NCBI RefSeq assembly: GCF_000217995.1 | Contig: NC_015676.1 | Location: 908,103-972,102 of the forward strand | Length of the DNA: 64,000 nucleotides | Reading direction: 5' to 3' | From: Methanosalsum zhilinae DSM 4017 | GTDB lineage: Archaea; Halobacteriota; Methanosarcinia; Methanosarcinales; Methanosarcinaceae | Part shown: positions 32,405 to 40,680 of the stretch, one piece after another | Numbering within the stretch: the stretch's first letter is position 1 | Layout: every line of letters starts with the position of its first letter | Notes under the pieces: generated by a model | Told to the model about the DNA's origin: nothing | The model's database searches: none | What the model saw: the letters and a program-made list of their open reading frames with translations, nothing else | Translations under genes and position numbers: made by a program

Positions 32405-33256
32405 TTATTTCATTTCCTTAAGCCTGCGAATTCTTTCTTCTGTATGAGGATGTGTTCTAAATAGTGATGTGAGTCCTTTTCCCTTGAGTGGATTTACTAT
32501 CAGCATATGCGCTGTACCCTGATTGATAGTTTCTCCTTTAGGCTGGTATGCAACTCCGCGTTCAAGTTTTTGAAGCGCGTTTGCAAGGGCCCATGGTTTC
32601 TGTGATATACGTGCACCTTCTGCATCAGCCGCAAATTCTCTGGATCTTGAAATTGCGAGCTGTATTATTGTTGCTGCAAGTGGTGCAATTACAGCCAGTG
32701 CAATAAAGCCGACAATACTGCCAGCACCCTGACTATCTCTGCCACCGAGACCTCCAAATATTGCAGTCCATCTCAGCCAGGTTGCAACCATGGTGATCAC
32801 ACCTGCAATTGTTGCTGCAACTGCACTTATCAGAGTATCTCGGTTTTTGATATGAGCCAGTTCATGTGCAATCACTCCTTCAAGTTCTTCTGTTGTCAGG
32901 AGGTTCATTATTGCTGTGGTAGCAGCTACTGCTGCATGTTCAGGATTTCTTCCTGTAGCAAAGGCATTTGGCATCGAGGTTTCAACAATATATACCTTTG
33001 GCATTGGAAGTTTTGCTCTCATCGCAAGCCTGCGGACAATATTGTAAAGCTCAGGCTGTTCAGATTCTGTAACTTCCTTTGCACGATACATCTTCAGTAC
33101 AATCTTGTCACTGTACCAGTATGTACCGAAATTCATGACAATAGCAAATATGAATGCTATTATCATCCCGCTTGTTCCACCAACCAGCATACCTACAATA
33201 ACCAGTAAACCTGTTAGTGTGGCCAGCAATAATGTTGTTTTAATAGTGTTACTCAT
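32405..33256 (-). CDS. htpX: HtpX-like membrane zinc metalloprotease
   Basis: A 283-aa membrane protease that degrades misfolded membrane proteins. Two N-terminal transmembrane helices (about 5-25 and 28-46) and two more near 155-215 flank the catalytic site [15 protein letters not shown] (HExxH near 140), with the third ligand likely the Glu in [10 protein letters not shown]. The [19 protein letters not shown] loop is typical. GAGGTAGATT precedes the ATG. The gene is not in an operon here and could be stress-induced. Confidence 0.93.
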
Positions 33257-33393: not shown

Positions 33394-33684
33394 TCAGTTA
33401 CCAGCTGAGTATATCTCAATTATATCATAGAACATCAATTCTTCTTCTGGAACAAGTTCTTCCTGAAACAGAGTATCAAAATAATTTATCTCCTCGTCAA
33501 TAACTTCCATTTCAATGTCTGTTAGGATTATTGATTCTTCATTAAGAACTTCATCTGCACTAAAGTTTGACCCTATATCCTCTGACAGTATATCATTTTG
33601 ATGGAGTTCAATGCATCCGGTAAACACAATGGCTGAAAAAATTAGAATAATCATCACAGAATATTCTGCAATTCTTTTGTTCAT
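33394..33684 (-). CDS. Small lipoprotein (96 aa)
   Basis: From ATG 33684: MNKRIAEYSVMIILIFSAIVFTGC is a signal peptide with a lipobox-like FTGC. The rest (about 70 aa) is strongly acidic (SEDIGSNFSADEVLNEES, EMEVIDEEI, EELVPEEELMFYD). No family is recognised. The open frame continues upstream to 33744, but AGGAG lies just before 33684 and only that start makes a signal peptide. It follows the secreted coiled-coil gene by 25 nt, so it is the last gene of that operon. Confidence 0.65.
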   Translation of the reverse strand: MNKRIAEYSVMIILIFSAIVFTGCIELHQNDILSEDIGSNFSADEVLNEESIILTDIEMEVIDEEINYFDTLFQEELVPEEELMFYDIIEIYSAGN

Positions 33685-33709
33685 ATGCTCACAACTCCTG
33701 AATCTGATT

Positions 33710-35248
33710 TTATAATTCAGCATCTTTGATAGCAGCAATTCCATCTATCACTTCATATTCCTGATCCCCAAAGCCTGTTATCCACTGATACCTTTGAGAT
33801 GATCCTGTATCTGATTCAATCGTGTATGTGCCTGTACCTGAAAATACTATTTTTCCATCTCCGGCAACATCTAAGGAAATGTCATTACCAACAATAACTA
33901 CAGTCAGCCGGGATCCTTCAATGAATGCAGATCCATTCAGGTTCTGATATACAAGAGCACGTTGATCATCTGACCTTTCAATATTGCCGTTAACCAGCCA
34001 GTAGTCTCCATCGACTCTTATATGGGAATCCTGTGCCAGATCTTTTATTATCAACTTACTGTCAGATGCTGAAGCATCGATGCTCAGGTTTCCTGAAAGA
34101 ACAACAGTGCCATTACCATTTGATGATAGTTTCTCAGAACTGTTTAGTTTTACCTGCCCGTTTCTTTCATTTTCGATTACTGTAAATAGATCTCTGAGAA
34201 CAGTATTTGCTTCATCTATATATGTCCTGGATCTTTGGAGATAATCCATGGACTCTTTTAGAGATTGCTCATCAGACCTGTCTTCAGCTTTACTAAGAGC
34301 AGATTCATAGCTATTCTTGGCTTCCTCAATAAGCTGTTTATACTTCATATATAATTCTTCTATCTGTGCTGTATCCCTGCCGGCATCTGAAAGGCTTGTG
34401 ATCTCACTTTCAATACGTATGGAGTATGATTCTGTCTGAGTAAGATAGTCCTCAATTCTTTTCGTCATTGTGTCAAACGATATACTTTCTGATTGGGAAT
34501 ATGCTTCTCTCCAGATAGTAAGTATATTCTGGGCAGTCTCTGCAAGATCTTTACTTTCATCAATGTTTTCTATATTTGCTCTCTCAGCCTCCAGTTGCTC
34601 GATGTAATATTCCATTTGTTCAACTTTATCGTCTTGATCACCTAAATTCTGAGCATTCTGCTTTATATTGTCAAGCTGAACAATCATGTAATCAACCGTA
34701 CTCAGCATGTAGTTTTTGGTCGCAGCTATTGCAACATCAGAATTTGGAGGTATGTTGTTATTTCTTATCTGCTCGTTTATGTTTCTGAAATTATCTCTTG
34801 ATTGTGCATATTCAGACTTGAACTGAAGTACAATTTCTCTTCTTTCAGGCCCCGGAGGAGTCTGTCTAAGAATTTGTATTTTTTCCTGGACTTCTGCTCT
34901 TTTTTTCACTGCATTATCTGTAATGTTATCCCGCTTAGTTTCTCCTCTATCCTTCATTCTAGCTGGCATATCATTGACATTATCTTCTCTTTCGGATGGT
35001 ATCTTTGGGTTTCTATTTGGTGCAACATCACGTGCTGGAAAGCTATCCCTTCTCTGGTTTATTGGATCAAAGTTCTCATTCTGATCTTCCTTTTGTGAAG
35101 TATTATTCAGGGCATCTTCATAAAAATCGCTCGAAGAGCGATTCTCATCTGCTCTATTGTCCATTGACGATACTACAGGTGAAAGTATGACCACTAGCAT
35201 GGATAGTATAATAAAGGTTATTACTATTCGTTTAATATTTGGCTTCAT
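33710..35248 (-). CDS. Secreted coiled-coil protein
   Basis: A 512-aa exported protein: signal peptide (about 1-30, IVITFIILSMLVVILSPVVSS), a low-complexity polar segment (about 32-110), a long helical/coiled-coil region (about 110-365), and a beta-rich C-terminal part (about 370-512) with NGTVVLSGNLSIDASASD and VEVAGD-like repeats. GGAGGTTAACTT before the ATG is a strong ribosome site. No named family except that helix-rich exported proteins like this accompany DUF5667 proteins in Methanosarcinales. Possible envelope scaffold; function unknown. Confidence 0.72.
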   Translation of the reverse strand: MKPNIKRIVITFIILSMLVVILSPVVSSMDNRADENRSSSDFYEDALNNTSQKEDQNENFDPINQRRDSFPARDVAPNRNPKIPSEREDNVNDMPARMKDRGETKRDNITDNAVKKRAEVQEKIQILRQTPPGPERREIVLQFKSEYAQSRDNFRNINEQIRNNNIPPNSDVAIAATKNYMLSTVDYMIVQLDNIKQNAQNLGDQDDKVEQMEYYIEQLEAERANIENIDESKDLAETAQNILTIWREAYSQSESISFDTMTKRIEDYLTQTESYSIRIESEITSLSDAGRDTAQIEELYMKYKQLIEEAKNSYESALSKAEDRSDEQSLKESMDYLQRSRTYIDEANTVLRDLFTVIENERNGQVKLNSSEKLSSNGNGTVVLSGNLSIDASASDSKLIIKDLAQDSHIRVDGDYWLVNGNIERSDDQRALVYQNLNGSAFIEGSRLTVVIVGNDISLDVAGDGKIVFSGTGTYTIESDTGSSQRYQWITGFGDQEYEVIDGIAAIKDAEL

Positions 35249-35280
35249 AAGTTAACCTCCAATAGATAGGAGCAATGAGA

Positions 35281-36249
35281 TTAGATATGCTCTGTTCCCA
35301 TCTCTTTTTGTCCTTGGAAATGTTCCACATTATTTGTATTCTGATTTCGGATTGATTCGTTAACTACAGGTGCTCTGTCAATATCTTTTCGTAGGTCCTC
35401 TGGTATACTATCTCTTTTTTCGAGTGCCTCAAGAGCTCGTTCATGACCTGCAAGAGATCTGTTCATTGCTTTTTCAATTGACTCTTTTGCATTATCTGGT
35501 ACTTTTTGGTGCACCATTTCAAGTCTTTCCTGATGTTTTAAAGTGGATTCTGCTACAATAATTTCGACTTCTGTCCTATTTGCCTCATCAAGACCTTCTG
35601 CCATCATGCTCATATCATTTATTATTGTTTCATAGTCTTCAAGTACCGGTTCTATAGAATCTGTTCTGTTACTTTCAACCAGCCTGTCTACCTCGTTTAA
35701 ACGATGTTCTGCAATCCTTGAATATTTGTGAGCCTTATCAACAGGATTTACTTCAGTTTGAATGCTAATTTCTTCAGCAGTCTTTTTTGCAGTATATCCC
35801 CTGTCATTGGGTGAAATACTCTTCTTTTCAAGAACAATCATATGAATTCCTGTTGCCTGACTAATAGCCGACTCTATTTCCTGTCTTACTGCGTCATCAG
35901 CCACATTATGTCCCAGTTCTCTGGCCATCATCAGATGTTCAGTATATCTCTGTTCAGCCTGTTCTGCAAGATCAGATTGATTTCTTTCCTGCATTATCCA
36001 TGCTTCACTTAGTCTCCTTTCACTGTATGAAAGTATTTTTTCAACTTTTTTCTGGTCATCAAACGTCAAATGGATGTCAATGGATTCGATGGCTCTTTCG
36101 AATCCGTAAAACAGAGAATCCGGAGTTGTCCCTGCATCTCTGAACTCATAGTTTTCAGCTGTATTTTCAAGTTCAACTAGATCAGCTGATGCTACCGGGA
36201 GCATACATAGAGCGATAATTAAGATTGAAATTATAATTATATTTCTCAT
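35281..36249 (-). CDS. Secreted DUF5667-domain protein
   Basis: A 322-aa exported helical protein: signal peptide (1-22), then the DUF5667 pattern PDSLFYGFERAIESIDIHLTFDDQKKVEKILSYSERRL starting near residue 43, which occurs in archaeal and actinobacterial extracytoplasmic proteins. The later region is rich in charged helices. GGAGG precedes the ATG. It is the first gene of the minus-strand set with the coiled-coil protein and the lipoprotein, and it faces the winged-helix regulator divergently across 230 bp. Confidence 0.8.
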   Translation of the reverse strand: MRNIIIISILIIALCMLPVASADLVELENTAENYEFRDAGTTPDSLFYGFERAIESIDIHLTFDDQKKVEKILSYSERRLSEAWIMQERNQSDLAEQAEQRYTEHLMMARELGHNVADDAVRQEIESAISQATGIHMIVLEKKSISPNDRGYTAKKTAEEISIQTEVNPVDKAHKYSRIAEHRLNEVDRLVESNRTDSIEPVLEDYETIINDMSMMAEGLDEANRTEVEIIVAESTLKHQERLEMVHQKVPDNAKESIEKAMNRSLAGHERALEALEKRDSIPEDLRKDIDRAPVVNESIRNQNTNNVEHFQGQKEMGTEHI

Positions 36250-36479
36250 ACTATTCCTCCATTAATTTAGTTTTCATTTTCCTAAAAACAATTGATAATA
36301 AAGATGGCTGAAATATAAGTATACTTTTTTATAAAGATATATTTCAAGAATAAATTTATAATTTAAAGCTTTAATATGCTTTTTTTTGGCAACTGAAACT
36401 TTATATTACTTTAGATTATTATATATCCCGATACAAAAATCTTCAGAAAAGCAATAGAAATATATTTTATACTGATATA
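36250..36479. promoter_or_regulatory. Divergent promoter region of the envelope cluster
   Basis: AT-rich sequence between the DUF5667 gene and the membrane regulator. It contains TATA-like stretches at 36320-36345 and 36410-36425 and the 16-nt sequence TTTTTTGGCAACTGAA at 36382-36397, which recurs at 41213-41228. It probably carries both promoters and any operator. Confidence 0.45.
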
Positions 36480-37304
36480 ATGAATTTTGTGAAATCAAAA
36501 AACGTATTTCATTTTCTGATAGCCTTCTTAATATTGATTGCTATTGCAACACCTGTGCAGGCAGGTACAGCCACAGTACATGGTGCAGTATATGACTGGT
36601 ATACATTTGATTTACTGGAAAATACAGTTGTTGAAGTCAATTCTACACCGCCGCAGTCATTGGTTGCAAAGCATGGGATATATTCCTTTGACCTTTCACC
36701 GGGAGAATATAAAATATCTGCAAGATATTACGAGAACGGAACGCTCAGGGCTTATGCTGAAGAAAGGATAACTATAGAAGGTCAGGGAAATTATGTACTT
36801 GATCTTCTTCTTTTACCTGCTTTTGATGATGAAGATCTCATTGATAGTGAATTTAATGAAGATATGACCAGTATAGCTGAGGAAAGGTCCAGGCCTGCGG
36901 ATGATGACTCTGGTATCTCTCTGGACATGTTCACTTTAATATTAGTGTTTACTGCATTTCTTATTCTGGTAATGGCAGGATATTTCCTATGGAAAAATGG
37001 TTCTGCTGTATCTATGGCAGAAAAAGAGGAAAAAGAGGAAAAAAAGAAGGACTTAGATAATAACTATCCAGGATCATCTGACACATTATTACTGTCTTCT
37101 GACCTGCAGGAAGTACTGGATATTATTTCATCACATGAAGGACGTATTACCCAGAAAGAACTTAGAAAAAGAATGAACTATTCAGAGGCAAAAGTAAGCC
37201 TCATGTTATCTGAACTAGAACATAATGGCCTGATTGAAAAGTTCAAACATGGAAGAGGAAATGTGATAATACTGGTTCATAAGCCTGAAAAAGGAAATAA
37301 ATGA
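36480..37304 (+). CDS. Membrane-tethered winged-helix regulator with extracytoplasmic domain
   Basis: A 274-aa protein. Signal peptide (about 1-28), an extracytoplasmic beta-sandwich of the carboxypeptidase-regulatory/PEGA type (about 32-115: TVHGAVYDWYTFDLLENTVV, GEYKISARYY), an acidic linker, a transmembrane helix (about 153-171, MFTLILVFTAFLILVMAGYF), a lysine/glutamate-rich stop-transfer, and a MarR-like winged helix (about 205-270: ITQKELRKRMNYSEAKVSLML). This COG2512-type architecture suggests one-component signalling across the membrane. The ligand and targets are unknown; the divergent exported-protein genes are the obvious candidates. Confidence 0.8.
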   Translation: MNFVKSKNVFHFLIAFLILIAIATPVQAGTATVHGAVYDWYTFDLLENTVVEVNSTPPQSLVAKHGIYSFDLSPGEYKISARYYENGTLRAYAEERITIEGQGNYVLDLLLLPAFDDEDLIDSEFNEDMTSIAEERSRPADDDSGISLDMFTLILVFTAFLILVMAGYFLWKNGSAVSMAEKEEKEEKKKDLDNNYPGSSDTLLLSSDLQEVLDIISSHEGRITQKELRKRMNYSEAKVSLMLSELEHNGLIEKFKHGRGNVIILVHKPEKGNK

Positions 37305-37427
37305 TATGTTATAAGTATAACAATGTTCAATCAAAATGTAGGTGAACAGATAATATCGATAAAGGTATTAGTGATGAACCAATCTTATACTCAAATTCAT
37401 AAACATAAAGATACAGCGAGGGCTTAT

Positions 37428-37934
37428 ATGCGAGTTTCAATGGACATTGAACTAAAAGATATTCCAGGACAATTGCTTTTAGCGTTACAACCCATATCAG
37501 ATCTTAAAGGAAACCTGATTTCGATTGTACATCATCATGAGAAGCATACTCCCCGTGGTACTATTCCGGTACAGCTGGTATTTGAGATTGGATCCAGTAA
37601 TCTTGACACATTAATTTCCCGGCTGGAAAATAGTGGTGTTGATGTGGTAAGAGTAGGAGAAGAGAGATTCATTGAACACGGGGCGGTGATCCTTATTGGC
37701 CACATTGTCCATACAAATATACAGGATACCATTGATACCATTGACAACACTGGTTTTGCAGAAGTTGTAGGCCTTACTCTTTCAATGCCACGTGTAAGCA
37801 AGCCGTCATCTGCATTTTTAAAGATAGATGCTGTTGGGAAAAAGGAATTGTATGAAGCTATATCTATTCTGAAAAATGTAGCTTCTAAAAAGAATCTTCT
37901 GGTTATTGAGCCGATTGAAACTCAGATGAAGTAA
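37428..37934 (+). CDS. ACT-domain regulator associated with homoserine dehydrogenase
   Basis: A 168-aa protein reading [24 protein letters not shown], an ACT-like ligand-binding module, with [21 protein letters not shown] and a second module around [20 protein letters not shown]. The start at 37428 has GAGGG upstream; the open frame from 37323 is too long for the family. It is 13 nt upstream of homoserine dehydrogenase, an arrangement common in methanogens that replaces the C-terminal ACT domain of bacterial Hom, so threonine feedback is probable but unproven. Confidence 0.85.
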
Positions 37935-37947
37935 GGTAGGGGATGCA

Positions 37948-38952
37948 ATGAATATTATACGTGTTTCTATTATAGGTTTTGGTGCTGTTGGACAGGGCGT
38001 AGCAGAAGTTATTTTGAAGAAGATGGATTATCTGCGAGATCTAAATCTCGAAATAAAAGTTGTAGCAGTTGTTGATTCCAGAGGAGCTGAAATAGATACT
38101 GAAGGTATCGATCTTGCTAAAGCCCTTGAAAGGAAACGTTCAAAAGGAACAGTGGCTCTTGTTGACAAAACAGGACTTGATGTAATTAAGAATATTGAAC
38201 ATGATGTTGTTATTGAAACAACCCCTACGAATATTGATGATGGTGGCGCCGGTCTCAGGAATATGCTTGAGGCTTTCAGGCAGGGCCGTGATGTGGTTAC
38301 TTCAAATAAGGGCCCCCTTGCTCTTAAGTATACGGAACTTGTAGAAGCTGCTAACAGTTCTGGATCAAAGTTCAGATTCGAGGCAACGGTTGGCGGTGCA
38401 ATGCCAATAATAAATTTGATCAAGGGGGTGCTTGCAGGCAATGAAATTCTAAGTATACAGGGAATTCTGAACGGAACCTGCAACTATATCCTCACACGGA
38501 TGCTGGAAGAAGAAGCATCCTATGAACAGATGCTTGCAGAGGCTCAGGAACGTGGAATTGCAGAGACTGACCCCACATACGATGTTGAAGGAATTGATGC
38601 CGCCTGCAAGTTAGTTATTCTTGCAAATAGTGTTTTTGGAATGAATGCCACCTATAAGGATGTAGATGTGACCGGAATTTCAAAAATTACCCCAGAATCA
38701 ATGATACTTGCATACAATGATGGATATGTAACAAAACTGATAGGAGAAGTTCGAAAGGATCTCCTGTGCGTAGCTCCTCGTCTGGTACCCATAGGGCATC
38801 CGCTTTCAGTCGGAGACACCCTTAATGTTGCATCAGTACAGACTGACCTTGCAGGACCGGTCACAATAACAGGCAGAGGTGCAGGTTCTATTGAAACGGC
38901 AAGCGCCATATTGAGCGACCTGATATCCATATCCAGAAATATGAATGAATAA
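37948..38952 (+). CDS. hom: Homoserine dehydrogenase
   Basis: A 334-aa NAD(P)-dependent enzyme reducing aspartate semialdehyde to homoserine. It has the Rossmann motif [26 protein letters not shown] near 116, [14 protein letters not shown] near 142 and the catalytic lysine region [20 protein letters not shown] near 205. No C-terminal ACT domain, consistent with the separate ACT gene just upstream. GGGGATGCA precedes the ATG. Feeds threonine (thrC at 11969) and methionine synthesis. Confidence 0.95.
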
Positions 38953-38994
38953 GACCGAGATTTTATTGTATTTCATTTTTAATTATTCAGTAAT

Positions 38995-40680
38995 ATGACA
39001 GCTTTCAAAGAATTTGCGCATGTATGCAGTCAGATAGAGAATACAAGCAGTTCACTTGAAATTACAGATATGGTAGCTGAGTTTTTCAGGATAGTTGATA
39101 CTGAAGAACTTCCAGTTGTCATACATTTTATTATGGGGGAAGTATTTCCTGCCTGGAGTGAAGAAGAACTTGGTATAGGTAAAGGGCTTTACTATACCTC
39201 TTTATCTAAAGTATCGGGACTTTCAGTAGACGAAATTAAAGAGATTGTTCGAAAGACGGGTGATATTGGTAAAACAACCATTGAAGTCATGAAAAATAAA
39301 TCCGGGGATCAGGTAACCTTCAGTGTCTTTTTTGATGATAATACACAATTATCCATAATAGATGTATATGAAGCACTAAAAAAAATTGCTGCAATTAATG
39401 GTAAAGGTTCTCAGAACATAAAGATGAAAAATCTGCAGTATATTTTCAGTAAAGCATCGCCACAGGAATCTCAGTACATGGCGCGTCTTGTCCTTGAAGA
39501 GTTGAGAATTGGTGTCGGGGAAGGAATTGTAAGAGATGCTATTGCTCTGGCTTTTGATGTTCCGGCAGAGTCTATTGAAAGGGGATTTATGCTGACCAAT
39601 GATATGGGAGCAGTTGGATTGGCTGCAAAAAAAGGTGGTATTGAAGAAGTTGAAAAGTTAAATATGGAATTGAATCGGCCCATTAAACTAATGCTTGCTC
39701 AGGTAACTCCCAGTATTAAAACCGCTATTGAGGAAATGGAAGAAGCTGCTATTGAATGGAAATTTGATGGTGCAAGACTCCAGGTGCATAAGGATAAGGA
39801 TAAAGTTTCGATATATTCAAGGAAGCTGGAGAATATCACTAATTCGCTACCCGATGTAGTATCTGCTGTAAAGGAGTATGTTAATGCAGATACTGCAATA
39901 TTGGATGGGGAAGCCTTTGCTGTGGACGAAAATGGAAAACCGAAACCATTTCAGGAAATACTCAAAAGGCTTCGTAGAAAGTACGATATAGAGATCACTA
40001 CAAGAGATATACCCCTGACTGTAAAATTCTTTGATATAATGTATCTGAATGGTGATTATCTTATTGATCTTTCACTCATTGAACGTAGAAGACTGCTTGG
40101 CGAATGTGTCAGGAACAGTAACTCCATCACAGTTGATCAGCAGGTTGTAACAGATGATCCTGAAATTGGAGAAAAGATATATAGTGAAGCAATAAGAGCG
40201 GGTCATGAAGGGATAATGATCAAAAATCCACAGTCACCATATACACCCGGTAAAAGAGGCAAAAACTGGCTCAAGAAAAAGCCAGTAATGGAAACGCTGG
40301 ATCTTGTGGTAATTGGAGGAGAATGGGGATACGGAAGACGTACTAATTTTATAGGATCTTATACACTTTCATGTTATGACCCAGATAGTGGAAACTTTTT
40401 ACCCATTGGAAAGGTTGGAACTGGTATAACCGATGAAAACCTTGTTGAACTAACAGGATTGTTTTCTGACCTTATAGTTGTTGAATCCGGAAGAGATCTT
40501 GAATTTAAACCGGAAATTGTTTTTGAGGTTGCTTTTGAAGAGATACAGAAAAGCACAAATTATGAGTCCGGTTATGCACTTCGTTTTCCACGACTTGTCA
40601 GTATAAGGGATGATAAATCTCCACATGAAGCCGATACTATCAGTCGTGTAGATGAAATATACAGATCACAGAGAAAATGA
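38995..40680 (+). CDS. lig: ATP-dependent DNA ligase
   Basis: A 561-aa archaeal replicative ligase. The nucleotidyl-accepting lysine is K256 in EWKFDGARLQVHK (motif I). Other motifs: ILDGEAFAVD (III), VKFFDIMYLNG (IIIa), GHEGIMIKNP (IV) and NWLKKKP (V), followed by an OB domain ending at about 555. N-terminal DNA-binding domain (1-200) is present, so the enzyme is full length. No ribosome site is evident before the ATG. Confidence 0.95.
   Translation: MTAFKEFAHVCSQIENTSSSLEITDMVAEFFRIVDTEELPVVIHFIMGEVFPAWSEEELGIGKGLYYTSLSKVSGLSVDEIKEIVRKTGDIGKTTIEVMKNKSGDQVTFSVFFDDNTQLSIIDVYEALKKIAAINGKGSQNIKMKNLQYIFSKASPQESQYMARLVLEELRIGVGEGIVRDAIALAFDVPAESIERGFMLTNDMGAVGLAAKKGGIEEVEKLNMELNRPIKLMLAQVTPSIKTAIEEMEEAAIEWKFDGARLQVHKDKDKVSIYSRKLENITNSLPDVVSAVKEYVNADTAILDGEAFAVDENGKPKPFQEILKRLRRKYDIEITTRDIPLTVKFFDIMYLNGDYLIDLSLIERRRLLGECVRNSNSITVDQQVVTDDPEIGEKIYSEAIRAGHEGIMIKNPQSPYTPGKRGKNWLKKKPVMETLDLVVIGGEWGYGRRTNFIGSYTLSCYDPDSGNFLPIGKVGTGITDENLVELTGLFSDLIVVESGRDLEFKPEIVFEVAFEEIQKSTNYESGYALRFPRLVSIRDDKSPHEADTISRVDEIYRSQRK

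What the first reader, a model, noticed from the sequence alone, without database searches (positions are those of the whole stretch)
33394..37304. Candidate envelope-sensing module: tethered wHTH regulator facing secreted helical proteins
Seen: a signal peptide, an extracytoplasmic beta-sandwich, one transmembrane helix and a cytoplasmic winged helix in one 274-aa protein. It is divergent from a three-gene series of exported proteins (DUF5667, a 512-aa coiled-coil protein, an acidic lipoprotein) that share no known function. Known: COG2512-type membrane wHTH proteins and DUF5667 exist in Methanosarcinales but have no role assigned. Inference: the regulator senses a surface signal and controls the divergent series as a one-component envelope system.
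Basis: partly seen in the sequence, partly recalled or inferred. Interest (0 to 1): 0.72.

Follow-up and report, generated by a model that had tools for sequence, protein, structure and literature searches.

The report
Membrane-tethered regulator with helically phased operator
In a methane-producing archaeon, a DNA-binding protein anchored in the cell membrane sits back to back with genes for secreted surface proteins, and the DNA between them carries a conserved row of short binding-site-like boxes spaced exactly one helix turn apart, so an archaeal envelope-sensing circuit can now be tested at named bases.

Summary
In detail: one 274-aa tethered wHTH protein (W) diverges from three exported genes (DUF5667 protein, helical protein C, acidic lipoprotein D). 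The proposed partner was wrong in one respect: DUF5667 is a lineage-specific insert. The conserved unit is W + C + lipoprotein.

In 150 genomes of the order, W is found in 139 and C in 132. 88 of the 118 C genes listed in the own family lie within 6 kb of W, always divergent or with C upstream. Across the phylum 87 of 246 genomes have both, 9 only one.

New finding: the spacer holds a two-part cis-element. A palindrome, AAGTATACTT (36317-36326), abuts the TATA-like box of the C operon. AAAG boxes lie 45, 55, 75 and 85 bp upstream, phased at 10 bp. A matrix trained without the window has its best hit of all 64 kb here. In the 2.14-Mb genome the composite finds this site plus one coding-region match lacking the palindrome. 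The array stands at C promoters in several families of the phylum, including C genes unlinked to W, and before MacB-type ABC operons.

Shown: gene module and cis-element. Inferred: that W binds it, the signal, and the sign of regulation.

The parts
36480..37304 (+). W: membrane-tethered wHTH regulator, 274 aa (N-out ectodomain, one TM helix, C-terminal cytoplasmic wHTH)
36570..36818 (+). W ectodomain, residues 31-113, transthyretin-like / CarboxypepD_reg fold; most conserved stretch HGxVYEWxTFEPLENxIVEVNSTPxQ
   Evidence: AF2 pLDDT about 95; Foldseek 6hif_Y, CPD/CPN TTR-like domains; alignment
36927..37007 (+). W transmembrane helix, residues 150-176
   Evidence: hydrophobic helix in sequence and AF2
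37098..37274 (+). W winged helix, residues 207-265 (DUF7343)
   Evidence: PF24034 9.2e-19, 32 of 32 homologues
36311..36332 (.). Proximal palindromic operator AAATATAAGTATACTTTTTTAT (core AAGTATACTT 36317-36326), abutting the TATA-like TTATATTT of the minus-strand operon; 73 nt upstream of B
   Evidence: motif found de novo in 46 spacers, ll 240 vs 42-43 in 3 shuffles; best of all 64 kb with matrix trained without the window, 16.7 bits vs next 9.7
36369..36372 (-). AAAG box at -45 from the proximal AAAG (36324-36327)
36379..36382 (-). AAAG box at -55
36399..36402 (-). AAAG box at -75 (TAAAG)
36409..36412 (-). AAAG box at -85 (TAAAG-N5-TAAAG pair with -75)
35281..36249 (-). B: exported DUF5667 helical protein, first gene of the operon here; lineage-specific addition
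33710..35248 (-). C: secreted helical-bundle + beta-domain protein, 512 aa; conserved partner of W
33394..33684 (-). D: acidic lipoprotein, 96 aa from ATG 33684; positional equivalent of the small acidic lipoprotein that follows C phylum-wide
   Evidence: sequence; synteny
32405..33256 (-). HtpX membrane protease; syntenic neighbour in the own family, no operator of its own found; not counted as part of the regulated unit

Best explanation
W is a one-component, membrane-tethered transcription regulator dedicated to the operon of the secreted protein C and its acidic lipoprotein (plus DUF5667 protein B in this lineage). Its cytoplasmic wHTH most likely reads AAAG half-sites: the promoter-proximal palindrome abutting the TATA-like box, and a row of upstream AAAG boxes spaced at 10 bp. 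All copies would then sit on one face of the DNA, and that face could be held against the membrane. The transthyretin-like ectodomain would sense the state of the envelope, possibly C or the lipoprotein itself, giving a feedback loop that sets the amount of this surface protein pair. Shown: gene module, its conservation, and the cis-element. Inferred: W is the binder, the signal, and the sign (slight lean to activation because array and core promoter keep a fixed helical phase).
For: W-C pairing: 54 divergent and 34 C-upstream, 0 convergent, 0 W-upstream among 118 listed own-family C matches. Pairing also outside the order. Co-occurrence in 87 genomes vs 9 with only one, of 246. Motif in W-C spacers far above shuffles. 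Held-out families: 54% of C upstreams >8 bits vs 2% of other genes, p=1e-12. AAAG phasing 54 of 63 in two phases; AAAA not phased. TAAAG pairs at 10 bp: 1.41 per region upstream of C in Archaeoglobus-like families vs 0.00 upstream of other genes on the same strand. Genome-wide, 16 of 22 triple TAAAG arrays in 32 genomes lie just upstream of C genes. Same architecture before C unlinked to W, including a second species of the window's genus, and before the ABC/MacB operons that follow paralogous C-W pairs. W is the only match to itself in its genome at E<=1.
Against: No binding data. The site follows C, not W: unlinked W genes lack it, so an unlinked regulator could be the binder. One genome that has C and (truncated at a contig end) W lacks the motif (G005). 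Several Archaeoglobus-like C genes have only degenerate proximal sites. The proximal element partly overlaps what a BRE/TATA core promoter would look like. Related sequences are not independent samples, so the p-values are inflated.
Confidence: 0.6

Rival explanations
1. The cis-element is real and controls C, but another transcription factor (not W) binds it; W is adjacent for other reasons or responds to C.
For: The element travels with C when C is unlinked from W and is missing upstream of unlinked W.
Against: W is the only regulator systematically next to C, across several families; the same site precedes ABC operons that follow W paralogues; own genome holds a single W.
Confidence: 0.25
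2. The AAAG array is a structural element (intrinsic curvature or nucleoid/histone positioning) of a strong promoter, not an operator.
For: A-rich boxes phased near the helical repeat can bend DNA (general knowledge); the proximal element resembles BRE/TATA.
Against: The G matters: AAAG is phased, AAAA is not. Other genes in the same loci lack it. The signature is almost unique genome-wide.
Confidence: 0.1
3. Conserved chromosomal neighbourhood only: W, C, lipoprotein, HtpX, ACT protein, homoserine dehydrogenase and ligase stay together by shared descent without functional link.
For: The HtpX-to-ligase block is conserved in the own family.
Against: W-C(-lipoprotein) persists in other families with unrelated flanking genes and in paralogous operons; the spacer holds a specific conserved element.
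Confidence: 0.05

Closest known systems
Transmembrane transcription regulators (TTRs; PMC10269533), e.g. ToxR/CadC
   Same: One polypeptide with a DNA-binding domain, a TM helix and an extracytoplasmic domain
   Different: Opposite order: ectodomain first, wHTH at the C terminus; MarR/DUF7343-type wHTH; paired with a secreted helical protein and a phased AAAG array
Cpx envelope-stress system of E. coli (CpxRA, CpxP, HtpX)
   Same: Regulator paired with a secreted helical protein (cpxP/cpxRA divergence recalled from memory); HtpX in the regulon; operator made of direct repeats at 10-bp spacing, GTAAA-N5-GTAAA (PMC9600279, PMC8831704) versus TAAAG-N5-TAAAG here
   Different: No kinase or response regulator; protein families unrelated as far as tested; HtpX is only a neighbour here and carries no site; the likeness is convergent at most
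Archaeal membrane-bound regulators ArnR/ArnR1 (Sulfolobus) and arCOG00381 (haloarchaeal pili)
   Same: Membrane-bound archaeal transcription factors for surface structures (PMC13286277, PMC4858521)
   Different: ArnR has an N-terminal HTH; different families as far as tested; no transthyretin-like ectodomain mentioned in the passages read
DUF5667 (PF18915)
   Same: B is a clear member
   Different: Not part of the conserved module; added in a few genera of the own family

Membership tests
Transmembrane transcription regulators (TTR) | Predicted DNA-binding domain | tested here: met
   DUF7343 67.5 bits (cut-off 27.6), MarR 29 bits (24.6)
Transmembrane transcription regulators (TTR) | Predicted transmembrane region | tested here: met
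   hydrophobic helix 150-176, sequence and AF2 model; no dedicated TM predictor
Transmembrane transcription regulators (TTR) | Regulates genes from the membrane | not testable with these tools
   needs genetics/biochemistry; conserved element in the spacer is indirect support
ToxR/CadC family | N-terminal OmpR-type wHTH, then TM, then C-terminal ectodomain | tested here: not met
   ectodomain N-terminal, wHTH C-terminal
CarboxypepD_reg / transthyretin-like fold (ectodomain) | PF13620 match or fold | tested here: met
   window protein itself below threshold, 16 of 32 homologues match; Foldseek TTR-like domains E 5e-6 to 1e-3
Cpx system | Sensor kinase CpxA plus response regulator CpxR | tested here: not met
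   one polypeptide, no kinase or receiver domain
Cpx system | 10-bp-spaced direct-repeat operator | tested here: met
   TAAAG pairs at offset 10; CpxR motif from PMC9600279; analogy, not homology
Cpx system | C is a CpxP/Spy homologue | tested here: not met
   no Pfam family, no PDB fold match below E 0.08
DUF5667 | PF18915 match | tested here: met
   152 bits vs cut-off 27
arCOG00381 / pfam11748 membrane regulators | pfam11748 match | tested here: not met
   not among the Pfam matches of W at E<=1

The most novel reading that the evidence does not exclude
W multimers, each tethered in the membrane, bind the helically phased AAAG row on one DNA face and so hold the C promoter against the inner membrane face. 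The circuit would be an archaeal envelope-stress response, convergent with Cpx, ancestral to several families of the phylum, with a small regulon of surface proteins and MacB-type exporters.
Probability: 0.3. Interest if true: 0.85.

Novelty: new variant of a known kind. Interest (0 to 1): 0.64.

Why it matters
Archaea have many membrane-bound transcription factors but very few with a known operator, target or signal. Here regulator, targets and binding-site-like array are predicted to the base, and the module recurs in methanogens for which, to my knowledge, genetic tools exist (Methanosarcina), so how archaea sense and repair their envelope becomes directly testable. A binding array phased to one DNA face is also a natural test of how a membrane-tethered protein reaches its promoter.

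Tried and rejected
(1) W-DUF5667 as the conserved pair: rejected. (2) Generic archaeal core promoter as the explanation of the proximal motif: rejected as sole explanation, because only 2-3% of other upstream regions score >8 bits. (3) Simple A-tract curvature: AAAA is not phased. (4) Co-loss of W and operator in G005 as a natural test: withdrawn, because W is present there but cut by a contig end. (5) Second own-genome hits of the patterns (618411, 704178): lie in coding DNA and score low with the matrix (7.5 and 3.5 bits), judged chance. (6) Fold of C: no confident PDB match; the 4HB_MCP hit is weak (5e-4, below the Pfam cut-off, 1 of 30 homologues) and not used. (7) The loose palindrome pattern alone is not enriched genome-wide over its reversed control in 12 genomes, so only the full matrix or the composite is informative. 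(8) Literature: no paper in the held library names DUF7343 or DUF5667; the two COG2512 hits are unrelated; subscription journals are not covered.
Full report
OBSERVATION. The four genes are present at the stated coordinates. W (36480-37304, +) has an N-terminal hydrophobic helix, a beta domain at residues 31-113, one transmembrane helix (150-176) and a winged helix (207-265) in a model of mean pLDDT 80. The winged helix is DUF7343, 9e-19, with MarR-type relatives. The ectodomain has a transthyretin-like fold: 16 of 32 homologues match CarboxypepD_reg and Foldseek finds TTR-like domains. B is DUF5667 (6.5e-45). C has no Pfam family and no confident PDB fold; the model shows a helical bundle 104-361 and a beta domain 365-488. 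D is a small acidic lipoprotein, most likely starting at 33684. The window lies in a 2,138,444-bp single-contig genome.

THE CONSERVED UNIT. In 150 genomes of the order, W has a match at E<=1e-5 in 139, C in 132, the DUF5667 protein in only 26, most of them weak. Of 118 listed C matches in the own family, 88 lie within 6 kb of a listed W match: 54 divergent, 34 co-directional with C upstream, none convergent, none with W upstream. Gene maps show a block HtpX - lipoprotein - C <-> W - ACT protein - homoserine dehydrogenase - DNA ligase in the own family. In other families W <-> C - lipoprotein persists with different flanking genes. A paralogous operon C(short) - W - ABC ATPase - NEW3/CARDB secreted protein - MacB/FtsX permease is common. 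DUF5667 stands between W and C here, but downstream of C or of the lipoprotein in other genomes that have it: an accessory, not the partner.

PHYLUM. In 246 genomes at least 90% complete, the C profile is found in 90 and the W ectodomain in 93; 87 have both (counts made by comparing the two lists). Divergent or C-upstream adjacency recurs outside the order in eight of the genomes examined.

THE CIS-ELEMENT, PART 1. I searched for a palindromic motif in 46 dereplicated W-C spacers. The width-22 solution, naAtaaAAGtATaCTTttaTtn, scored ll 240 against 42-43 for three dinucleotide-shuffled sets. A matrix retrained on 34 spacers of the own family with the window left out has its best hit in all 64 kb at 36311-36332, 16.7 bits, next best 9.7. 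In held-out families 54% of C upstream regions exceed 8 bits against 2% of other genes (Mann-Whitney p=1e-12). Oriented toward C it reads AAAGTATGCTTATATT: the palindrome runs into a TATA-like box. The site is also upstream of C genes that are not next to W (L124, L125, L127, L160, L163), before each of several tandem C copies, and is absent before unlinked W genes (L123, L126, L128, L161, L170).

THE CIS-ELEMENT, PART 2. Upstream of the proximal site lies a row of AAAG boxes (consensus tTTATAAAGcTTtAtAA) at a strict 10-bp period. TAAAG pairs at offset 10 occur 1.41 times per C upstream region in Archaeoglobus-like families, 0.73 in other families and 0.13 in the own family; upstream of other genes, read on the coding strand, the rate is 0.00 in all three groups (the few opposite-strand pairs near other genes are compatible with arrays of neighbouring C genes, not checked one by one). 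Relative to the proximal AAAG, boxes peak at -45, -55, -65, -75 and -85. In 35 regions less than 60% identical to each other, 54 of 63 AAAG between -90 and -40 fall in two adjacent phases (binomial p about 6e-28, inflated by shared descent); AAAA shows no such phasing. In the window the boxes are at -45, -55, -75 and -85 (36369, 36379, 36399, 36409, minus strand). In a second species of the same genus, whose C operon is not next to W, boxes at -45, -75, -85 and a proximal site precede that operon.

SPECIFICITY. Across 32 whole genomes the triple array TAAAG-N5-TAAAG-N5-TAAAG forms 22 distinct arrays by my count, of which 16 lie just upstream of a C gene (one search compared). In the own genome the composite AAAG-N26-AAAG-N41-AAGNATNNTT (gaps allowed one base either way) has two matches, reversed control none. 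One is the spacer; the other scores only 3.5 bits with the matrix. In 84,980 species genomes a stricter composite has 7 matches: 4 in Methanosarcinaceae, of which 3 lie before C operons and one near a contig end, and 3 in bacteria, two Clostridia and a Treponema. The same two-part architecture precedes the ABC/MacB operons of the paralogous loci, the ArsR-type gene that heads the Methanosarcina C-W operon, and a few other genes for exported proteins or lipoproteins. This is a small candidate regulon of the cell surface.

MECHANISM. The best reading is that W controls the C operon by binding these AAAG sites. Steps shown: tethered wHTH protein, conserved partnership, conserved specific cis-element in the spacer, gene order. 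Steps inferred: W is the binder (about 0.6), activation rather than repression (slight lean), ectodomain senses envelope or C/lipoprotein state. A 10-bp period puts all boxes on one face of the helix, which suits a row of membrane-anchored proteins. The element follows C rather than W, so direct autoregulation of W is not implied, and another binder is the main rival.

COMPARISON. W meets the definition of a transmembrane transcription regulator (PMC10269533) but has the reverse domain order of ToxR/CadC. It resembles the Cpx envelope response in logic: helical secreted partner, HtpX neighbour, 10-bp direct-repeat operator GTAAA-N5-GTAAA. It is not a member: no kinase, no response regulator, no homology found. 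I therefore file it as a new variant of a known kind.

LIMITS. Sequences are related, so p-values overstate. The pairing counts use the best 150 matches listed per search. One genome with W and C (G005) lacks the motif. No expression or binding data were available.

Noticed in passing
36480-40680: W is followed on the same strand by an ACT-domain protein, homoserine dehydrogenase and DNA ligase (18-nt gap after W); this order is kept in most fetched own-family divergent loci, so W may be cotranscribed with housekeeping genes.
   Followed up: partly
L113-L120, L130: Paralogous operons C(short)-W-ABC ATPase-NEW3/CARDB protein-MacB/FtsX permease; the ABC part has its own proximal site with AAAG boxes at -45 and often -75.
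   Followed up: partly
L212, L214, L216, L218, L222: Exported proteins or lipoproteins unrelated to C near the proximal motif, several with in-phase or near-phase AAAG boxes: possible further regulon members.
   Followed up: no
L099-L103, L121 (e.g. L101:7686-8006): A small secreted Asp/Cys-rich repeat protein (DRDQDCTGVPD...) lies directly upstream of C in several own-family genomes.
   Followed up: no
L101, L103, L104, L121: Tandem duplicates of C at one locus, most with their own operator copy.
   Followed up: partly
L110, L122: In a second species of the window's genus the W-C link is broken, yet the phased array stays with the C operon; an unrelated 179-aa secreted protein takes the first-gene position that DUF5667 has in the window.
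   Followed up: yes
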